Assembly (NCBI RefSeq): GCF_000353285.1
Contig: NZ_KB731324.1
Coordinates: forward strand, 5,784,577-5,848,576
Length of the DNA stretch: 64,000 bases
DNA from: Leptolyngbya boryana PCC 6306
GTDB lineage: Bacteria > Cyanobacteriota > Cyanobacteriia > Leptolyngbyales > Leptolyngbyaceae
Direction: 5' to 3'
Of the stretch, positions 12,802-19,891 are shown piece by piece. Every line of letters begins with the position of its first letter. Positions within the stretch are counted from its first letter, which is position 1. The notes under the pieces are model-generated. The model made no database searches. It saw only the letters and a list, made by a program, of their open reading frames with translations, and was not told the origin of the DNA. The position numbers and the translations under genes were made by a program.

Positions 12802-12836
12802 CGCTACGGAAGTTCTCACCTCCGTAGCGTTTTTTA
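12802..12836 (+). terminator. Intrinsic terminator after the response regulator
   Basis: CGCTACGGA (12802-12810) pairs with TCCGTAGCG (12821-12829), followed by a run of T. It slightly overlaps the 3' end of the convergent carotenoid oxygenase gene. Confidence 0.85.
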
Positions 12837-14261
12837 TTGAGCAGGTTTCCATGTCCCATGAAATCCGAGAGGGATGACTTCCGGCAATGCTAATCGACAT
12901 ACGGGCTGATCATCTAAATGCTCACTATCGAACACCCAAACTTCACTACTATCTGTACGCGCATCGTAAACAACGGTAATAATCCAACCTTGATTGGCAT
13001 CGATCGCATCAGGTGCGTAAATCGGTTCCATTGGATAGCGATTCTCCCCACAGTCAGCTTCGATCAGCGTTTCAGTTTTCCGATCGAATCTCCCGATCGC
13101 GCCAAAGAAATCTTTCGTCGAATCGCTGCCTTTACGATGCATTGCTAAATAGGTATAGCGCCAGTCTTGTCCCACATCGACTGGGTTTACCACCGGAAAT
13201 TCTAAGTGTCGATCGACGAGTTCCTGCTGCTCGAATACTTTCCCCGTTTTCGGATTGACTCGAACTTGCCACAGGGTCGATTTTGCGGAGGTATGCGTCT
13301 CGCCCGTGGCAACCTGTCTGAGGTATTCATTAGTATTGAAGTCGGGGAGGCGGATGATATCAACGATCGCATTGCCATCCTCATCCACACAAGCATTGCC
13401 AAAATGCCATTGATACCAAGGATCAGTTTCGCCTTTGCTCACCAGTTGTAGCGTTTCTCGATCGAAGACCAACACTTGAGTTCCGAGTTCTGGCTTCCAG
13501 TCGAACGACTCGCTAAAACTCTTAATTCTTGCTAACAGCAAAAACGGATTCAACCGTACAGGCGAAACAAAAAAGAGTAAATACTGACCTGCCATCACAA
13601 AATCGTGGATGAGCGGAAAGCCGTCTAGGGTGTAGCTATTTCGCTGCTTGAGTTTGCCATTTGCATCGACACAATACAAATTCAGAACCGGGTCTTTCCC
13701 AACGGTCACACCGAAATTGTAGATATCTCCGGTTTTGGGGTCACGTTTTGGATGAGCAGAAAAAGGAATTGACTCCGGTAAGCTTCCTAAAGGGTCAGGT
13801 TCTCCAGTCTCTAAGGTTTCTAGATTGAGCGTGTACGGATGTGCGCCTTCCCAGAGAGCGAGTAAGCGATCGCTCAATGCCAACACTGAGGTATTTGCCG
13901 CATTTTTCAAGCCTTTCGTAAAGCGATTGATCAATCCTCCGGGTGGCAACATGCCATAACCGCTGTACATCAATCGCCCCGCCCGTTCCTCATTGAGAAA
14001 TTCTGGCGTTTCCACATAGCGATAAACCCCCGTTGCGCCCGCCTCTTTGAAATGCACGGCTAAGATTGCGCCATCGCCATCAAACCAATGTCCAACTCGC
14101 GTATTGCCGCGTTCTAGGCGACCGGGACCGTTGCGGTAGAGTGAGCCTCTCAAGCCTTCGGGAATTTTGCCAGATAAAATTGGCAGAGCCGTGGCTGAAA
14201 AGCCTTTGGCAGTATGAAGAACAGATTGAGTCCAAGGTTGTGATTTTACAGCGGTGACCAT
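12834..14261 (-). CDS. Carotenoid/apocarotenoid cleavage oxygenase (RPE65 family)
   Basis: Non-heme iron dioxygenase of 475 residues that cleaves carotenoids or apocarotenoids at a double bond. All four iron-ligand histidines are present: H170 (FSAHPK), H219 (LIHDF), H286 (WHFGNA) and H468 (GFHGTW). Second-shell motifs GSLYRNGPG and HWFDGDGA are intact. Length and spacing are close to Synechocystis apocarotenoid-15,15'-oxygenase, so a retinal-forming enzyme is plausible, but regiospecificity cannot be read from sequence. It is the last gene of a compact operon with devB, a DUF3291-like gene, devC and devA, only 10 nt after devA. Confidence 0.92.
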   Translation of the reverse strand: MVTAVKSQPWTQSVLHTAKGFSATALPILSGKIPEGLRGSLYRNGPGRLERGNTRVGHWFDGDGAILAVHFKEAGATGVYRYVETPEFLNEERAGRLMYSGYGMLPPGGLINRFTKGLKNAANTSVLALSDRLLALWEGAHPYTLNLETLETGEPDPLGSLPESIPFSAHPKRDPKTGDIYNFGVTVGKDPVLNLYCVDANGKLKQRNSYTLDGFPLIHDFVMAGQYLLFFVSPVRLNPFLLLARIKSFSESFDWKPELGTQVLVFDRETLQLVSKGETDPWYQWHFGNACVDEDGNAIVDIIRLPDFNTNEYLRQVATGETHTSAKSTLWQVRVNPKTGKVFEQQELVDRHLEFPVVNPVDVGQDWRYTYLAMHRKGSDSTKDFFGAIGRFDRKTETLIEADCGENRYPMEPIYAPDAIDANQGWIITVVYDARTDSSEVWVFDSEHLDDQPVCRLALPEVIPLGFHGTWKPAQ

Positions 14262-14271
14262 AATTTTTTTC

Positions 14272-14943
14272 TTAGTTTAGTAGCTTGCCATCTTCGAGTT
14301 CGACAATTCGATCGGCGATATCTAAAATCCGATTGTCGTGAGTGACGAGTAAAATCGTGCAGCCTTGTTCTTGGGCAAGTTTTTGCATGAGTTCAACGAC
14401 ATCTCGACCGGATTTTTTATCGAGTGCAGCAGTCGGTTCGTCGGCAAGAACAATTTTGGGATGACTCACTAGCGCACGAGCGATCGCGACTCTTTGTTTT
14501 TGTCCACCCGATAAGTCTGCGGGATAGTAATCCATCCGATGTTCTAATCCGACCGCAGTGAGAATTTCTTCTGCCATTGTCGAAGCAGTTTTATAAGGGG
14601 TTTCGCTTAATTCTAGCGGCATCATGACGTTCTCTCGTACAGTCAGACATTCGAGAAGGTTGTGTGCTTGAAAGATGTAGCCTAACTGCTGTCTTGCTTG
14701 AACAAGCTGAAGTTTGCTGGCATTTGAGAGGTTTTGTCCGAGAACATTGAGCGTGCCGGATTGCGTCGATCGTAGACATCCGATTAAGCTCAAAAGCGTT
14801 GTTTTACCTGAGCCGGAAGGCCCTGTCATGATTACAATTTCGCCGCTTTGAATGTTGAGATTGATGCCAGACAGAACTTGTTTTTTGAGTTGACCTTGAC
14901 CGTAGTAATGATCGAGGTTCTGAATGGAAATTGCGGTGTTCAT
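14272..14943 (-). CDS. devA: ABC exporter ATPase, DevA family
   Basis: ATP-binding subunit of a DevBCA-type ATP-driven exporter, 223 residues. It has Walker A GPSGSGKTT (41-49), the Q-loop near IFQAHNLL, signature LSGGQKQR (143-150), Walker B IVLADEP and switch His in LVTHDNR. It belongs to the MacB/LolD-like family, which partners a FtsX-like permease and an HlyD-like fusion protein; both are encoded upstream in the same operon. In heterocyst-forming cyanobacteria DevBCA exports glycolipids. Here the neighbouring carotenoid oxygenase suggests another lipid or apocarotenoid cargo (inference). Confidence 0.92.
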   Translation of the reverse strand: MNTAISIQNLDHYYGQGQLKKQVLSGINLNIQSGEIVIMTGPSGSGKTTLLSLIGCLRSTQSGTLNVLGQNLSNASKLQLVQARQQLGYIFQAHNLLECLTVRENVMMPLELSETPYKTASTMAEEILTAVGLEHRMDYYPADLSGGQKQRVAIARALVSHPKIVLADEPTAALDKKSGRDVVELMQKLAQEQGCTILLVTHDNRILDIADRIVELEDGKLLN

Positions 14944-14945
14944 GA

Positions 14946-16106
14946 TTAGAAAATATCTGCGGGGTCAGCCGATCGCAGTTTTCTGACCGAAATTGCGGCT
15001 GAGATTGTACACATCATTGCAGTTAGCATTAACACAAATGTTGCTCGTCCTATGGTCATCACCATGGGTAAAAGTGTTGCTTGTCTTGTGACCTGATAGA
15101 AGCCTAGAGAAATCGCAAACCCAGGCAGAAATCCAATAAATGCCAGAATCAGTGCTTCTTGGAAGACAACTGAAAGCAAATAAGTATCTCGAAATCCAAT
15201 TGCTTTCAGCGTTGCATATTCCGGTAAGTGATCAGTTACATCACTGTAGAGAATCTGATAAACCACAACTGCACCCACAATAAAACCAATCACTGCGCCC
15301 AAATCAAACACATAACCAACGGGTGTGCTCGTGTTCCAAAAACTCTTTTCTTGCTCCATAAATTCCGCTTTTGACATGATTCGGACATCATTTGGCAAGC
15401 CCGATCGCAGATTTTGCAGCACTTGATCCAAATTCGCATCCGATCGCAGTTTCACAACTCCCACATCAATCAAGCCTTTCTGCCGCCGCTCTCGAAACAT
15501 CCGCAAAAAGTTCAAATCGCTCGTAATCATGTGCCCGTTAATTCCAAACGAAGTTCCGAGCTTAAACAATCCAACGACATCCACTCGTCGATGCTCAACT
15601 TCAGTCGTCACATTTCCCGAAGCTTGAAATAATTGCGGAATTCTCCCAAATTCTTGCCGCGCTCCTGCATCAAACAGTACAGTATCAGGGCGTTTTAGCA
15701 ATTCAGTATTTGATTTCACTTCTGGTAACAGAATTGTTTGATCATCTGGATTAATGCCAATTGCATAAAGATTCCAAATCTGCTGATTTTCTGGATTCTT
15801 CCACTGAACTGGGCTGAGATAAACGGGCGTGACTGATTCAACTCCTGAATAGCCTAATGCTTGATACAATCGCCGTTCTGTAAATCGATCGAGAGAAATT
15901 ACGGCTTTATAGCGATCGCTGACTAGAAAAATCTCGCCATCCAAAACCTGATGAAGCTGAACGGCTCCTTCAAATAACGCACTGCGAAATCCCATTTGCA
16001 AGAACATCAAGACATCGGCAAAAGCAATTCCCGCGATCGCAACAATCATTCGTCCCCGTTCTTTGGTCAGTTGCTTCCAAGCTAACGGAATTCTGCGTTT
16101 CAGCAT
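14946..16106 (-). CDS. devC: ABC exporter permease, DevC family
   Basis: A 386-residue FtsX/MacB-like permease: N-terminal transmembrane helix (about 18-42), a large periplasmic domain, and three C-terminal helices (about 265-290, 315-340, 345-370). The periplasmic segment includes SPVQWKNPENQQIWNLYAIG and ITSDLNFLRMF, typical of DevC. It is 2 nt upstream of devA and 7 nt downstream of the DUF3291-like gene, so all are translated from one mRNA. Together with DevA and DevB it should form a tripartite efflux pump using TolC. Confidence 0.92.
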   Translation of the reverse strand: MLKRRIPLAWKQLTKERGRMIVAIAGIAFADVLMFLQMGFRSALFEGAVQLHQVLDGEIFLVSDRYKAVISLDRFTERRLYQALGYSGVESVTPVYLSPVQWKNPENQQIWNLYAIGINPDDQTILLPEVKSNTELLKRPDTVLFDAGARQEFGRIPQLFQASGNVTTEVEHRRVDVVGLFKLGTSFGINGHMITSDLNFLRMFRERRQKGLIDVGVVKLRSDANLDQVLQNLRSGLPNDVRIMSKAEFMEQEKSFWNTSTPVGYVFDLGAVIGFIVGAVVVYQILYSDVTDHLPEYATLKAIGFRDTYLLSVVFQEALILAFIGFLPGFAISLGFYQVTRQATLLPMVMTIGRATFVLMLTAMMCTISAAISVRKLRSADPADIF

Positions 16107-16113
16107 AAAAGCC

Positions 16114-16503
16114 TCAATTAAATCGATGGTTTTGGTGCGCGATCGAGGGATGCGTCAATGAGCTAAATCGACCGCTCGTAAACATTGCCGTTTCAGCCTC
16201 TTCCCAAGTTGTTGAGGTTGCCCTTTCTGATTGCCAATGAACGACCGAAGCTTCATCACACCAATTTTGCAGTTTTGGCATGACTTCTCGATGAGAACCC
16301 GATCTCATAAACGATCGCATCGATGCTTCATCTTCCCAAACCGTCTTTGTCCAAAACACATTTTTGCCCGCTGCTCGAATGGTTGAAGCTAAGTTGCCTT
16401 GAGCTTGTTTTGCTTGTTGGTTGCTTTTGAAGGAATACCAGAGAAATGCTGGAAGAAATCGAACAGAGCGCACTCGTAAGCGCGTGACAGAAATCAAGGG
16501 CAT
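16114..16503 (-). CDS. DUF3291/antibiotic-biosynthesis-monooxygenase-like protein
   Basis: A 129-residue protein with a predicted ferredoxin-like alpha/beta barrel. Visible family traits are RLRVRSVRFLPAF at the N-terminus, FWTKTVWEDEASMRSFMRSGSHREVM (in two parts), and SVVHWQSE. Relatives of this fold include cofactor-less monooxygenases and heme-degrading enzymes, but DUF3291 members have no settled activity. It is inserted between devB and devC, which are normally adjacent, in an operon ending with a carotenoid oxygenase. This suggests modification or sensing of the transported compound (inference). The C-terminal 25 residues are unconserved-looking. Confidence 0.75.
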   Translation of the reverse strand: MPLISVTRLRVRSVRFLPAFLWYSFKSNQQAKQAQGNLASTIRAAGKNVFWTKTVWEDEASMRSFMRSGSHREVMPKLQNWCDEASVVHWQSERATSTTWEEAETAMFTSGRFSSLTHPSIAHQNHRFN

Positions 16504-16536
16504 TGTTTTACTCCTAAAATTAGCGAAGATCAGTAA

Positions 16537-17688
16537 TTATTGAAGGCCGATCGCGATTTGCAGTTTCATATTCGTTAAGCCTGCAACGCTCTGACTGTCC
16601 TCTGGATCGAGTCGAACTTTGACTTCAACCACTCGCGCATCGATCGATGCCGCTGGATCGGTGTTCAAAACATCTTTCTTGGCAACTTCTAAGCCAATTT
16701 CGTCTACTTTGCCTTTGAGCGATCGTGCGAGTTTTCCACCCGATACGCTCGTCATCGTTGCTGCCTGTCCGACTCGAATCTTTGGCAAATCGGTCTCATA
16801 CACTTCGGCAACGGCATACATCACATCCGTTTGCCCGATCGAGACAATTCCATTTTTGCTATCGATGATCTCGCCTTCCCAGGTATGAACTTTGAGAATC
16901 TGCCCATCTCTCGGCGCACGAACGACTGTTAAATCCAGCTCTGCTTGAGTTTGTTGAACAGCAGCGATCGCACTTTGCACCTCTGCCTGTGCTGCCTCGA
17001 TATCCACCGGACGCACCTCAGCAATCCGATCTAACGTGGCTTCGGCTTCTTTGACTTGTTTCGCAATCGTTTCGGCTGCCTGTCTTCGATTGGCTTTTGC
17101 TTCTGCTAATTGCTGACGCGAAACATCTAAGGTTAATCGTTTCCCATCTTTGAGAGAAGTGGAAATCGCACCCTGTTTTTCTAAGAATTCGTATCGCTGA
17201 AATTCCAATTCGGCATTTTTTACTTCTGCTTCTAATTTCGCGATCGCCGCATCTTTCGCTGCCACATCCTCACGCAATTGCACTTCAGTGCGATCAATCG
17301 TTGCCTGCTGTGCAGAAATCTCTCCCCGCTTCGCGCCTGCTTCCACCTGCGCCAATTTTGCTTGAGCAATTCCGACTCGCTTCTGGGCTTGAGTTAAAGC
17401 TGCTAAAGCGCGATCGTGCGTATCCAACACGGCAATGATTTGACCTTTGCGGACTCGATCTCCCAACTTCACCCGCAATTCAGCAATTCGACTTCCAGGC
17501 GGATTGGCTGCCAGTTGGATCACTTCTCCTTTCGGTTCTAATCTCCCCAATGCCGTTATCGCTTGAATGGCAGGAGCATCAGAAATCGCAACTGCCACCG
17601 TTTTCGGACGAAATTGATAGAGCGCGATCGCCCCAAACGCTGTCAAAATAACCGCAATTCCAATCGATCGTGGTTGAATCTGCTGCAT
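16537..17688 (-). CDS. devB: ABC exporter membrane fusion protein, DevB family
   Basis: HlyD-type periplasmic adaptor of 383 residues. It has an N-terminal membrane anchor (about 10-26), a split lipoyl/biotinyl-like domain (GRLEPKGEVIQLA, then VVRAPRDGQILKVHTWEGE), a long coiled-coil hairpin (about 95-235, rich in Ala/Glu/Lys), and a beta-barrel domain ending KVRLDPEDSQSVAGLTNMKLQIAIGL. It connects the DevAC pump to an outer-membrane TolC. It is the first gene of the operon. Its promoter region is shared with divergent padR and carries three palindromes. Confidence 0.92.
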   Translation of the reverse strand: MQQIQPRSIGIAVILTAFGAIALYQFRPKTVAVAISDAPAIQAITALGRLEPKGEVIQLAANPPGSRIAELRVKLGDRVRKGQIIAVLDTHDRALAALTQAQKRVGIAQAKLAQVEAGAKRGEISAQQATIDRTEVQLREDVAAKDAAIAKLEAEVKNAELEFQRYEFLEKQGAISTSLKDGKRLTLDVSRQQLAEAKANRRQAAETIAKQVKEAEATLDRIAEVRPVDIEAAQAEVQSAIAAVQQTQAELDLTVVRAPRDGQILKVHTWEGEIIDSKNGIVSIGQTDVMYAVAEVYETDLPKIRVGQAATMTSVSGGKLARSLKGKVDEIGLEVAKKDVLNTDPAASIDARVVEVKVRLDPEDSQSVAGLTNMKLQIAIGLQ

Positions 17689-17708: not shown

Positions 17709-17789
17709 ATGCACTTAGTTGCATAACACTTGCTAGAATATATGCAACTAATTGAATATGTCAACAGTTTTGTATGCAAAAAATTGCAT
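17709..17789. promoter_or_regulatory. Three PadR-type operator copies between devB and padR
   Basis: Three 16-bp elements follow the pattern ATGCA-N6-TGCAT. They are ATGCACTTAGTTGCAT (17709-17724), the degenerate ATGCAACTAATTGAAT (17742-17757) and ATGCAAAAAATTGCAT (17774-17789). Start-to-start spacing is 33 and 32 bp, about three helical turns each, so a dimer could bind all three on one DNA face. An 11-bp inverted repeat, TTAGTTGCATA/TATGCAACTAA, also spans the first two. The position suggests autoregulation and control of the exporter operon. Confidence 0.7.
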
Positions 17790-17820: not shown

Positions 17821-18405
17821 ATGGCATTGAGTCACGCAATTTTGGCTCTTTTAATCGACAGCCCTTACAGCGGCTACGATCTGGCAAAAGATTTTGATCA
17901 GTCGGTGAATTTTTTCTGGAAGGCAACGCACCAGCAAATTTATCGCGAACTCAGCAAGCTCGAAGAGCAGGCATTGGTTGAAGTCAGCACGATCGCGCAA
18001 GCAGGACGACCCGACAAAAAGCTCTATCACATCACCAAAGCGGGCGAAACATTCTTAATCGAATGGCTGCTCCAACCTTGTGAAGTCATGCCGATCAAAG
18101 AAGACTTGCTCGTGAAACTTTGGGCAGCGCAATTGATCCCCGTTGCTCATGCGATCGAACAGTCCGCTTCCGTTGCCAAACTAATCGAAGAATTCCAGCG
18201 ACATCGAGAACTGCATCAGCAGCGACTCGCGACGTATCACCAAATCGAGCGCAAATTTTATCCAGATTCCGATCATCTGCCAATTGCCCAAAAATACCGT
18301 TACCTTGTGTTGCGGCGCGGCATTCGCTATGAAACAGACTATATCGAATGGTGTGATGAAGTTCTCAAACTATTCGCAAATCAAGCGGAAGGCAAGGGTG
18401 TCTGA
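17821..18405 (+). CDS. PadR-family transcriptional regulator
   Basis: A 194-residue regulator with an N-terminal winged helix (ILALLIDSPYSGYDLAKDF, then the wing ALVEVSTIAQAGRPDKKLYHITKAG) and the C-terminal Vir-type dimerisation domain (helical, from about 95). PadR proteins usually repress divergent genes and release DNA on ligand binding. It is transcribed away from devB, and the shared promoter has three palindromes. The frame opens at TTG 17806, but the ATG at 17821 is the better start. Ligand unknown; an exporter substrate is a reasonable guess. Confidence 0.9.
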   Translation: MALSHAILALLIDSPYSGYDLAKDFDQSVNFFWKATHQQIYRELSKLEEQALVEVSTIAQAGRPDKKLYHITKAGETFLIEWLLQPCEVMPIKEDLLVKLWAAQLIPVAHAIEQSASVAKLIEEFQRHRELHQQRLATYHQIERKFYPDSDHLPIAQKYRYLVLRRGIRYETDYIEWCDEVLKLFANQAEGKGV

Positions 18406-18441: not shown

Positions 18442-18948
18442 TTGAGTCAATCGATCGACGATCTACCTAAAGTAGATGATTTTCTACAAGAACTCGCCAC
18501 GATTCAGCAAACAGGGTCGAAACGGATTGCGATTCTCGGTTCACGCCACGTGCCGATTACGCACCAAACTCTGATTGAACTGATGACGTATGCGTTGGTT
18601 TTAGAAGGGAACCGGATTATTACATCCGGCTCGACCGGGACAAATTTTGCTGCAATTCGAGGAGCATTACGGGCTGATCCGTCGATGTTAACGGTGATTT
18701 TGCCGCAAGGACTCGATCGACAACCCCGTGAGTCTCGTGAGCAGCTTGAAACCGTCATGCATTTAGTCGAGTGTCCAGAGAATAATAGCCTTTCTCTTGG
18801 CGAAGCGAGTGCGCTCTGTAACCAGGAAATCATTTCTCGCTGTCAACAGCTCATTTCGTTTGCGTTCCATGATAGTCACACGCTGCTACAAACCTGCCGC
18901 GATGCTGAAGATCAGCGCAAAGTTGTGACATTGTTCTATTTCGACTAA
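18442..18948 (+). CDS. DprA-like nucleotide-binding (LOG/Rossmann) protein
   Basis: A 168-residue Rossmann-like protein resembling the core of DprA/Smf DNA-processing proteins. KRIAILGSRHVPITH corresponds to the GSR motif, ITSGSTGTNFAAIRGAL to the loop binding DNA or phosphate, and TVILPQGLDRQPRESREQ to the following strand. It lacks the SAM-like and winged-helix flanks of full DprA, so it is a short stand-alone version whose role in recombination or transformation is uncertain. It uses a TTG start, since the preceding ATG at 18431 hits a stop after four codons. It is 36 nt after padR. Confidence 0.7.
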   Translation: MSQSIDDLPKVDDFLQELATIQQTGSKRIAILGSRHVPITHQTLIELMTYALVLEGNRIITSGSTGTNFAAIRGALRADPSMLTVILPQGLDRQPRESREQLETVMHLVECPENNSLSLGEASALCNQEIISRCQQLISFAFHDSHTLLQTCRDAEDQRKVVTLFYFD

Positions 18949-18954
18949 ATTTTT

Positions 18955-19383
18955 ATGTTGTTTGGATTGTCCGTCCCGAGCTTGCTGCTGATTGCGATCG
19001 CGGTCGCAGTCGTGTGGATTTATGTGCCATTTTTAGTTGTTGCGTACGCCCGCGCTCAGATTGGGTATCTCACGAACAAAGAAATGATGGCAGCCCCGCG
19101 CGCCACCTTTGATCAATTGCCGGACTATGGAAAGCGAGCTACTTGGGCACATCAGAATGCGCTCGAAGCCTTTCCGATTTTTGCCGCGGCAGCATTGATG
19201 GCGTATGTGACTCATCAAACTTCCGCATGGGCAGGATGGGCAGCGATCGCTTGGATCGTGGCACGATTTCTGTATCCCGTTTTTTACATTCTGAATGTCT
19301 CCATTTTGCGATCGTTGATGTTCGGAATTGGCTCAGTTTGCAGCTTTACGTTAATCGGACTAAGCTTGATCAGCACGCTCTAA
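18955..19383 (+). CDS. MAPEG-family membrane protein
   Basis: A 142-residue, four-helix membrane protein of the MAPEG superfamily (eicosanoid and glutathione metabolism family). The first helix is residues 5-30. Then comes the cytoplasmic loop with [19 protein letters not shown], the glutathione-binding region of the family, and the helices at 75-95, 97-115 and 118-140. Bacterial members can have glutathione transferase or peroxidase activity, but the substrate is unknown here. It is 6 nt after the DprA-like gene and 16 nt before yajQ, so one operon. Confidence 0.85.
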
Positions 19384-19399
19384 AAGACTTTTTTGTTTT

Positions 19400-19891
19400 A
19401 TGGCTTCTACTTTTTCGTTTGATATTGTGAGCGACTTCGATCGTCAGGAACTCGTCAATGCGATCGACACAACGAAGCGCGATGTTCTCAGCCGCTACGA
19501 TCTCAAAGATACGAAAACGGAGATCGAGTTGAATGCTGATGCGATCGTAATTAACACCGATAGCGAATTTACCCTAGATGCAGTGCATACGCTGATGCAA
19601 CAGCGAGCTGCAAAACGGAATCTGTCCTTGAAGATTTTCGATTATGGCAAGGTTGAATCCGCGAGCGGAAGTCGCGTTCGACAAGAAATTAAGTTGAAAA
19701 AAGGCATCAGCCAAGATATCGCCAAGCAGATCACTAAGATTATTCGCGATGAATACAAGAAAGTTCAAGGCTCAATTCAAGGCGATGCCGTTCGAGTGAC
19801 TGCAAAATCAAAGGATGATTTGCAAGCCGTGATGCAGCGGATGAAACAAGAAGATTTTCCGGTGGCATTGCAGTTTACCAACTATCGGTAA
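19400..19891 (+). CDS. yajQ: YajQ-family nucleotide-binding protein
   Basis: A 163-residue YajQ/UPF0234 protein with two ferredoxin-like halves. Family signatures are [18 protein letters not shown] at the N-terminus, [13 protein letters not shown], and [20 protein letters not shown] with the C-terminal [12 protein letters not shown]. Some members bind cyclic di-GMP and act as effectors, and others interact with tRNA or GTP, so the ligand here is open. It ends the padR-dprA-MAPEG-yajQ run. Confidence 0.93.

What the first reader, a model, noticed from the sequence alone, without database searches (positions are those of the whole stretch)
12834..17688. Five-gene operon joining a carotenoid-cleavage oxygenase to a DevBCA-type exporter
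Seen: devB, a DUF3291-like gene, devC, devA and an RPE65-family oxygenase are packed with gaps of 33, 7, 2 and 10 nt on one strand. Known: RPE65-type enzymes make apocarotenoids such as retinal, and DevBCA exports hydrophobic cargo through TolC. Inference: this may be an apocarotenoid production-and-export system, with the DUF3291 protein modifying or sensing the product and PadR regulating it. I do not know this combination as a described system.
Basis: partly seen in the sequence, partly recalled or inferred. Interest (0 to 1): 0.75.

Follow-up and report, generated by a model that had tools for sequence, protein, structure and literature searches.

The report
PadR-linked carotenoid-cleavage and export operon
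A cyanobacterium carries, in one tightly packed gene set behind a shared switch, an enzyme that probably cuts carotenoid-derived compounds and a pump that may push a greasy product out of the cell; relatives pair this enzyme with different pumps, which suggests the two work together.

Summary
The full five-gene order was seen only in the window's genome, but its parts recur. Among 159 other distinct loci of the oxygenase group, a divergent PadR gene lies upstream in 21, DevBCA upstream on the same strand in 5, a DUF3291 gene upstream in 3. Oxygenase-linked DevC proteins fall in three separate places of a tree (one clade rejected, p-AU 8e-51), so different pumps joined the oxygenase. The 8-mer TTGCATAT/ATATGCAA occurs in 19 of 27 promoters of this PadR group (38 copies; 0.39 expected from shuffling) and brackets this operon's predicted -10 box. 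DUF3291 has a predicted ABM-type fold. The oxygenase is not the retinal-forming ACO, which lies elsewhere in the genome; by elimination it is NosDiox2/NSC3-like. Best reading: a PadR-controlled operon that cleaves carotenoid-derived compounds and expels a product through a DevBCA/TolC-type pump. Cargo, regulation and co-transcription are unproven, and each module also occurs without the others. New variant of known parts; no description seen in the paper listings searched.

The parts
16537..17688 (-). DevB: periplasmic membrane-fusion protein of a DevBCA (MacB-like) exporter
   Evidence: TIGR02971 352 bits; PF13437 and PF16576
16114..16503 (-). DUF3291 protein with a predicted antibiotic-biosynthesis-monooxygenase (dimeric alpha/beta barrel) fold; probably a small oxygenase or carbonyl-binding protein
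   Evidence: PF11695; three relatives also match or approach PF03992 ABM; predicted b-a-b-b-a-b chain, best model mean pLDDT 69, the other four 61 to 39, from a two-sequence alignment; Foldseek hits to ABM proteins such as SnoaB, LsrG and PA0709; 33 columns invariant in 8 aligned proteins
14946..16106 (-). DevC: FtsX/MacB-type permease
   Evidence: TIGR01185 515 bits
14272..14943 (-). DevA: ATPase of the exporter
   Evidence: TIGR02982 363 bits
12834..14261 (-). Carotenoid cleavage oxygenase (RPE65 family), probably NosDiox2/NSC3 type
   Evidence: PF03055 427 bits; 216 bits to Synechocystis ACO 2biw; H170, H219, H286, H468 and E138, E354, E412 invariant in 16 aligned proteins (their roles as iron ligands and second-shell residues are recalled)
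17821..18405 (+). Divergent PadR-family regulator, presumed repressor
   Evidence: PF03551 and PF10400; in one group of 27 PadRs (support 95/88) that holds the oxygenase-locus PadRs and a few from units without oxygenase
17715..17751 (.). Putative PadR operator: inverted repeat TTAGTTGCATA-N15-TATGCAACTAA
   Evidence: perfect 11-bp arms; core TTGCATAT/ATATGCAA in 19 of 27 promoters of the PadR group and 0 of 5 outgroup PadR promoters
17773..17789 (.). Second operator-like site (TATGCAA-N4-TTGCAT) nearer to padR, possibly autoregulatory
   Evidence: sequence
17737..17764 (-). Promoter-like site for the operon, TTGACA-N16-TATATT, 11 of 12 consensus; the operator arms lie on either side of its -10 box, the right arm overlapping it by two bases
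   Evidence: best of 8 sites found; 6.7 expected in shuffles, so the count alone means little

Best explanation
A PadR-controlled operon for handling carotenoid-derived carbonyl compounds. At rest the divergent PadR protein binds the TTGCATA...TATGCAA repeat around the operon's -10 box and keeps it silent (inferred from a recurrent sequence). A hydrophobic inducer, perhaps an apocarotenoid or a xenobiotic, releases it (inferred from known PadR/LmrR behaviour). The operon then makes (1) a non-haem-iron oxygenase of the NosDiox2/NSC3 type that cuts carotenoid breakdown products into shorter aldehydes and ketones (family shown, substrate inferred), (2) a small ABM-fold protein that oxidises or otherwise handles a reactive product (fold predicted, function inferred), and (3) a DevBCA pump that passes an amphiphilic product through a TolC-type outer-membrane channel encoded elsewhere in the genome (pump family shown, cargo inferred). 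In a Pseudanabaena-type clade the same PadR-oxygenase pair carries oxidoreductases, in one case an aldehyde dehydrogenase, which may be another way to dispose of the same aldehydes.
For: Tight co-directional packing. Same operon without DUF3291 in G022. DevBCA upstream of the oxygenase in 5 of 159 other loci, including Plectonema radiosum NIES-515, and a DevA remnant just before the oxygenase in G016. Oxygenase-linked DevC proteins lie in three places of the tree, one clade rejected. PadR divergent upstream of the oxygenase in 21 of 159 loci (20, plus L040), in one PadR group with a shared operator-like repeat. DUF3291 directly before the oxygenase without exporter in G012 and G013, and 2.7 kb upstream of it, with two other genes between, in an Aphanothece MAG. 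Aldehyde dehydrogenase and flavodoxin-like oxidoreductase (L105), DUF1963 and cupin (L176), af470-like monooxygenase (L194) and NAD epimerases between PadR and oxygenase in a Pseudanabaena-type clade. TolC-type channel gene in the genome. DevBCA-like pumps use HgdD, and two of them give drug resistance in Anabaena (PMC8277102, passages).
Against: 154 of 159 oxygenase loci show no complete DevBCA within 4.5 kb upstream (some cut by contig ends). PadR-DevBCA units occur with no oxygenase seen beside them (G015, G018, G020, G024, G029, G036, G037, G425; G036 and G425 end near DevA on the contig, but their oxygenase is on another contig). Where the oxygenase lies apart from PadR-DevBCA (G015, G018, G024) its upstream region has no exact operator 8-mer, so joint control is not kept. 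G021 keeps PadR and DUF3291 with no detected oxygenase anywhere and no DevBCA beside them, though that genome is in 1060 contigs. In 4 of the 5 other DevBCA loci the oxygenase starts about 240-400 nt after DevA, so co-transcription there is unsure. No cargo is known.
Confidence: 0.45

Rival explanations
1. A multidrug/xenobiotic resistance operon: PadR senses foreign hydrophobic or aromatic compounds, DevBCA pumps them out, and the oxygenase and ABM-fold protein degrade some of them (stilbene-type or quinone-type), not carotenoids.
For: PadR regulators are linked with detoxification and multidrug resistance (PMC3506622, abstract start in listing); DevBCA-like pumps Alr4280/1/2 and Alr3647/8/9 give drug resistance (PMC8277102, passages); the oxygenase family also holds lignostilbene dioxygenases (94 and 89 bits); redox enzymes sit between PadR and oxygenase in a Pseudanabaena-type clade; PadR-DevBCA without oxygenase was seen in 8 genomes.
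Against: The oxygenase scores highest to apocarotenoid oxygenase (216 bits) and higher to two carotenoid dioxygenases (152, 124) than to lignostilbene dioxygenases (94, 89); the best NCBIfam model is an apocarotenoid 13,14-cleaving dioxygenase (166 bits against 138 for lignostilbene dioxygenase, both far under their cut-offs). Of the best 80 named loci 76 have cyanobacterial titles, and the Nostoc enzyme it matches by elimination cuts apocarotenoids (PMC5133782, passages).
Confidence: 0.3
2. Shared switch, separate jobs: the PadR locus is an island where stress genes are inserted and lost. Oxygenase and exporter answer the same stress (for example light or oxidative damage) but do not share a substrate.
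For: Very variable cargo behind one PadR group; oxygenase and DevBCA are apart in G018, of the window's own genus; the operator 8-mer is absent where the oxygenase lies apart.
Against: Pumps of three lineages joined with the oxygenase, always upstream on the same strand; gaps of 2-33 nt in the window and a DevA-oxygenase gap of about 10 nt also in G022.
Confidence: 0.2
3. Chance juxtaposition of unrelated genes with no functional meaning.
For: Only 6 of 160 loci, window included, carry the pairing.
Against: Separate pump lineages, same orientation each time, and a divergent PadR with a recurrent repeat; in Plectonema and on the short G038 contig no PadR was seen.
Confidence: 0.05

Closest known systems
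DevBCA-HgdD glycolipid exporter of Anabaena sp. PCC 7120 and its drug-resistance paralogues Alr4280/1/2 and Alr3647/8/9
   Same: All three pump parts pass the DevA, DevB and DevC family cut-offs; gene order B-C-A; a TolC-type channel gene elsewhere in the genome.
   Different: Here a DUF3291 gene is inserted between devB and devC, a carotenoid-family oxygenase follows devA, and a PadR gene is divergent. No such combination turned up in the passages read.
NosDiox2/NSC3 (all4895) of Nostoc sp. PCC 7120
   Same: By elimination the same class. Chlorogloeopsis fritschii PCC 6912 is reported to have one NosCCD, one NosDiox2 and two NosACO relatives (PMC7029182, passage); in its genome I find one gene of the window's group (58%), two at 33% with ACO-like lengths and one at 32%. 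The 32% type, tested in a Cuspidothrix copy only, is CCD1-like.
   Different: NSC3 is reported as an enzyme that cuts apo-8'-carotenal at C13-C14 and C15-C15' (PMC5133782, passages); no exporter is reported with it there. Assignment is not by direct alignment to all4895.
Synechocystis apocarotenoid-15,15'-oxygenase (ACO, Diox1)
   Same: Same enzyme family, four histidines kept.
   Different: The window genome has a separate ACO ortholog (600 bits against 216 for the window protein).
LmrR/PadR multidrug repressor of the LmrCD pump (PMC5428041, abstract start in listing)
   Same: PadR-family regulator, operator-like repeat at the promoter, ABC pump as presumed target.
   Different: The pump is a tripartite DevBCA type and the unit includes an oxygenase; binding and ligand untested.

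Membership tests
DevBCA-type (MacB-like) tripartite exporter | Separate membrane-fusion protein, FtsX-type permease and ATPase in one gene set, all over the Dev family cut-offs | tested here: met
DevBCA-type (MacB-like) tripartite exporter | A TolC/HgdD-type outer-membrane partner exists in the genome | tested here: met
   PF02321 twice in one 627-aa frame at G000:C1:3594710-3595942; interaction not tested
DevBCA-type (MacB-like) tripartite exporter | Exports a defined amphiphilic cargo | not testable with these tools
   needs a mutant and metabolite analysis
Carotenoid cleavage oxygenase (RPE65 family) | Full-length domain with four histidines for iron | tested here: met
   PF03055 10-469 of 469; H170, H219, H286, H468 invariant in 16 of 16 aligned proteins; ligand role recalled
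Carotenoid cleavage oxygenase (RPE65 family) | Cleaves carotenoids or apocarotenoids | not testable with these tools
   enzyme assay needed
NosDiox2/NSC3 class | Orthology to all4895 | tested here: inconclusive
ACO (retinal-forming) class | Orthology to Synechocystis ACO (2biw) | tested here: not met
   another gene of the genome is far closer
Antibiotic-biosynthesis-monooxygenase (dimeric alpha/beta barrel) fold | Ferredoxin-like b-a-b-b-a-b chain matching ABM structures | tested here: met
   moderate model confidence (best pLDDT 69; 62 PDB matches at E <= 0.001)
Antibiotic-biosynthesis-monooxygenase (dimeric alpha/beta barrel) fold | Monooxygenase activity | not testable with these tools
   the fold also serves other functions (LsrG among the matches)
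PadR repressor with C-terminal domain | PadR winged helix plus Vir_act_alpha_C domain | tested here: met
PadR repressor with C-terminal domain | Binds an inverted repeat in its divergent promoter | tested here: inconclusive
   recurrent repeat present; binding not shown

The most novel reading that the evidence does not exclude
A dedicated bacterial system that makes and secretes a cleaved carotenoid: a carotenoid oxygenase, a small tailoring enzyme and a TolC-linked ABC pump under one ligand-sensing repressor. It would be a bacterial counterpart to plant strigolactone making and export (oxygenases plus an ABC transporter; recalled), with pumps recruited from three lineages in cyanobacteria, and it would release a signal or deterrent molecule.
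Probability: 0.22. Interest if true: 0.8.

Novelty: new variant of a known kind. Interest (0 to 1): 0.55.

Why it matters
Cyanobacteria release many carotenoid-derived compounds (odours, retinoids), and I know of no dedicated exporter for them (recalled; the listings, two of them capped, showed none). The recurrent pairing names a candidate pump, a candidate regulator with a readable operator, and a small set of mutants that would test it. It also gives a genetic context for the NosDiox2-type enzyme and for a DUF3291 protein.

Tried and rejected
Considered: the oxygenase is the retinal-making ACO. Rejected, because another gene (G000:C1:2688446) is the ACO ortholog. Considered: the oxygenase is of the CCD1/NosCCD class. 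Rejected, because another Nostocales type matches plant CCD1 at 364 bits against 124 for the window protein. Considered: PadR controls separated oxygenase genes in trans. Not supported: L044, L051 and L065 have no exact operator 8-mer upstream. Considered: a link to heterocyst glycolipid export; not pursued, since the DevC of the window belongs with PadR-linked paralogues, but devBCA of PCC 7120 itself was not in the tree. Considered: that the ACO gene all4284 lies near the drug pump alr4280-82 in PCC 7120, from locus numbers in PMC7029182 and PMC8277102; in the 8 genomes no ACO-like match lay within 40 kb of a DevC match (E <= 1e-60) on one contig, so it was not used. Searches that gave little: papers on DUF3291 (1 hit, listing only); NosCCD/NSC3 by name (mostly unrelated); PMC1559462 and PMC3648047 are not held. 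The promoter scan count is at chance level.

Rows dropped and limits: 13 of 172 oxygenase loci were dropped as duplicates before the count of 159, and the window itself is not among them. Many loci end at contig ends, so absence of a neighbour is a lower bound. One PadR (L040) was missed by the clustering and is counted. PadR matches under 120 residues and duplicates were left out of the PadR tree. The operator control used single-letter shuffles, and the 8-mer was chosen after looking at the repeats. Distances are differences of ORF ends, with mechanical start codons, and may be off by one or more. Pfam names for neighbour clusters rest on one or a few members each.
Full report
What is there. 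On the minus strand the window holds DevB (17688-16537), a DUF3291 protein (16503-16114), DevC (16106-14946), DevA (14943-14272) and an RPE65-family oxygenase (14261-12834), with gaps of 33, 7, 2 and 10 nt. The Dev proteins pass the NCBIfam cut-offs for DevB, DevC and DevA; the oxygenase matches PF03055 over nearly the whole profile; DUF3291 is just over its Pfam cut-off. A PadR gene starts at 17821 on the other strand.

The oxygenase. The four histidines H170, H219, H286 and H468 are invariant in 16 of 16 aligned proteins (iron role recalled). Its best solved relative is Synechocystis ACO at 216 bits, then two carotenoid dioxygenases at 152 and 124; lignostilbene dioxygenases reach 94 and 89. 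But the genome has a second gene that matches ACO at 600 bits, so the window gene is not the ACO. A third type in Nostocales, tested in a Cuspidothrix copy, matches plant CCD1 at 364 bits. Nostoc sp. PCC 7120 has NosCCD, NosACO and NosDiox2/NSC3, and Chlorogloeopsis fritschii PCC 6912 is reported with one NosCCD, one NosDiox2 and two NosACO relatives (PMC5133782 and PMC7029182, passages). In the C. fritschii genome I find one gene of the window's group, two at 33% and one at 32%, which fits window group = NosDiox2. That enzyme is reported to cut apo-8'-carotenal at C13-C14 and C15-C15'. This is elimination, not a direct alignment.

How far the neighbourhood holds. In the window's order 41 of 42 genomes have some match to the oxygenase; by my reading of the table 39 of 42 have one of the window's group, one of them truncated. 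In the phylum sample 92 of 386 have one at E <= 1e-95. I read the surroundings of 159 distinct loci of this group, window not included, many of them cut by contig ends. Within 4.5 kb a DprA-like gene is divergent upstream in 24 and a PadR gene in 21 (20 plus L040). Complete DevB-DevC-DevA lies upstream on the same strand in 5: G022, G033, G035, G038 and Plectonema radiosum NIES-515. DUF3291 lies upstream in 3: directly in G012 and G013, and 2.7 kb away with two other genes between in an Aphanothece MAG. The full five-gene order was seen only in the window's genome. So the strict order is not conserved, but its pieces are.

Pieces apart. PadR with DevB-DUF3291-DevC-DevA and no oxygenase beside it occurs in G018 and G024, whose oxygenase lies elsewhere. 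PadR-DevBCA without oxygenase beside it occurs in G015, G020, G029, G036, G037 and G425 (two of these contigs end near DevA). PadR-oxygenase without pump is commoner than with pump. DUF3291 relatives were found in 8 of 42 order genomes: in a unit divergent from this PadR in 6 (window included), at a contig end in G014, and as a broken remnant beside the oxygenase in G025. In G021 only DUF3291 remains beside PadR and no oxygenase was found. In G016 a DevA fragment lies about 70 nt before the oxygenase, as if a pump had been lost.

Pumps of three lineages. A tree of 33 DevC proteins puts the oxygenase-linked ones in three places: window with G022, inside a set of PadR-linked pumps; G033, G035 and G038, together with G039 (same pump, short contig) and near G015; and Plectonema alone. 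Holding all six as one clade is rejected (p-AU 8e-51), as is holding five without Plectonema (p-AU 6e-5); the groups were tagged before the tree was built. In a quick tree of 48 oxygenases the window-G022 pair and the G033/G035/G038 set each sit with members of their own genus, and Plectonema stands alone. The likely history is an old oxygenase gene to which different pumps were joined, or at which pumps were swapped, three times. This is the strongest evidence for a working link.

The switch. The promoter region has a perfect 11-bp inverted repeat, TTAGTTGCATA-N15-TATGCAACTAA, at 17715-17751, whose arms lie on either side of the -10 box of a promoter-like site at 17764-17737. In a PadR tree the oxygenase-locus PadRs form one group of 27 (support 95/88) that also holds those of G015, G018, G021 and G024. 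The core 8-mer TTGCATAT/ATATGCAA occurs 38 times in 19 of these 27 promoters, 0.39 expected from single-letter shuffles, and in 0 of 5 outgroup PadR promoters. The 8 of 27 without it include all six of the Pseudanabaena-type clade. Close upstream of the oxygenase itself it was found in 6 of 22 loci with PadR (in several others genes lie between). In 137 loci without PadR there were 8 hits, 7 overlapping the start codon and 1 inside the gene, so none upstream. The motif was chosen after seeing the repeats, so the count overstates somewhat. A gapped form occurs at three places in the genome, one of them here; the reversed control pattern occurs at one place, and the other two sites were not examined. 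Separated oxygenase genes in G015, G018 and G024 lack the 8-mer, which counts against a fixed partnership.

The small protein. DUF3291 relatives share 33 invariant columns, W51, H71, C82, H89 and W90 among them. The best model from two sequences (mean pLDDT 69; the other four models 61 to 39) shows the b-a-b-b-a-b chain of the ABM fold. Foldseek finds ABM proteins such as SnoaB, LsrG and PA0709, and relatives also touch the Pfam ABM model. It is probably a small oxygenase or a protein that binds reactive carbonyls; this is inference.

Other cargo. In a Pseudanabaena-type clade of six loci the space between PadR and the oxygenase holds a NAD epimerase (5 loci) and/or a cupin (5 loci), and in single loci a flavodoxin-like oxidoreductase and an aldehyde dehydrogenase (L105), DUF1963 (L176) or an af470-like monooxygenase (L194) (Pfam run on L105, L176 and L194 only). 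An aldehyde dehydrogenase next to an aldehyde-making oxygenase fits disposal of a carotenoid aldehyde, but also fits general detoxification.

Mechanism. Shown: gene order, families, predicted fold, recurrent repeat, pumps of separate lineages. Inferred: repression by PadR, an apocarotenoid substrate, action of DUF3291, export through a TolC-type channel (one candidate in the genome). I put the carotenoid handling-and-export reading at 0.45, a xenobiotic-resistance reading at 0.3, a shared-switch reading at 0.2 and chance at 0.05.

Literature. Searches for DevBCA with carotenoid (2 papers, both listed), DUF3291 (1), two of DevBCA, multidrug, apocarotenoid and PadR (20 of 1,682 listed), PadR with cyanobacterial carotenoid oxygenase terms (15 of 112 listed) and apocarotenoid with efflux terms (15 of 517 listed) showed no description of this unit in their listings. 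The library lacks most subscription papers. Passages only were read, in PMC3299332, PMC5133782, PMC8277102, PMC7029182, PMC7660261 and PMC6161253.

Noticed in passing
window 12802-12835: A hairpin (9-bp stem) plus T-run ends the convergent response-regulator gene; its T-run overlaps the stop codon of the oxygenase, so the two genes end face to face (sequence).
   Followed up: partly
L105:3305-9407; L194:4107-8423; also L093, L103, L109, L176: A Pseudanabaena-type clade carries PadR, then NAD epimerase and/or cupin and other oxidoreductases (aldehyde dehydrogenase in L105, af470-like monooxygenase in L194), then the oxygenase; a second PadR fragment lies in L105.
   Followed up: partly
L114, L164, L191, L192, L195, L214: A glyoxalase-type gene (Pfam run on L214 only) lies upstream on the same strand of the oxygenase in 6 loci, from about 65 to 3,991 nt away.
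   Followed up: no
L089, L091, L098, L099, L100, L101, L108, L112, L166, L168: A globin-type gene (Pfam run on L168 only) is divergent from the oxygenase in 10 loci, most of the named ones Nostoc.
   Followed up: no
L081, L106, L110, L113, L125, L160, L174, L182, L193, L199: A short-chain dehydrogenase (Pfam run on L182 only) follows the oxygenase on the same strand at about 530-790 nt in 10 loci.
   Followed up: no
L154, L155, L157: MAGs labelled Thiohalocapsa and Chromatiaceae hold the same oxygenase type at about 50% identity; in L154 and L155 a second oxygenase is divergent nearby. Possible gene transfer from cyanobacteria.
   Followed up: no
G000:C1:3109947-3110624 (L266): The window's genome encodes a microbial rhodopsin, which needs retinal; the separate ACO ortholog could supply it.
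   Followed up: partly
L126: A MAG labelled Candidatus Gracilibacteria carries this mostly cyanobacterial oxygenase; probably a mislabelled or contaminated bin.
   Followed up: no
window 18442-19891: The DprA-like, MAPEG and YajQ genes next to PadR recur as a block; the DprA-like gene is divergent upstream of the oxygenase in 24 of 159 loci and may mark an old position of the oxygenase.
   Followed up: partly
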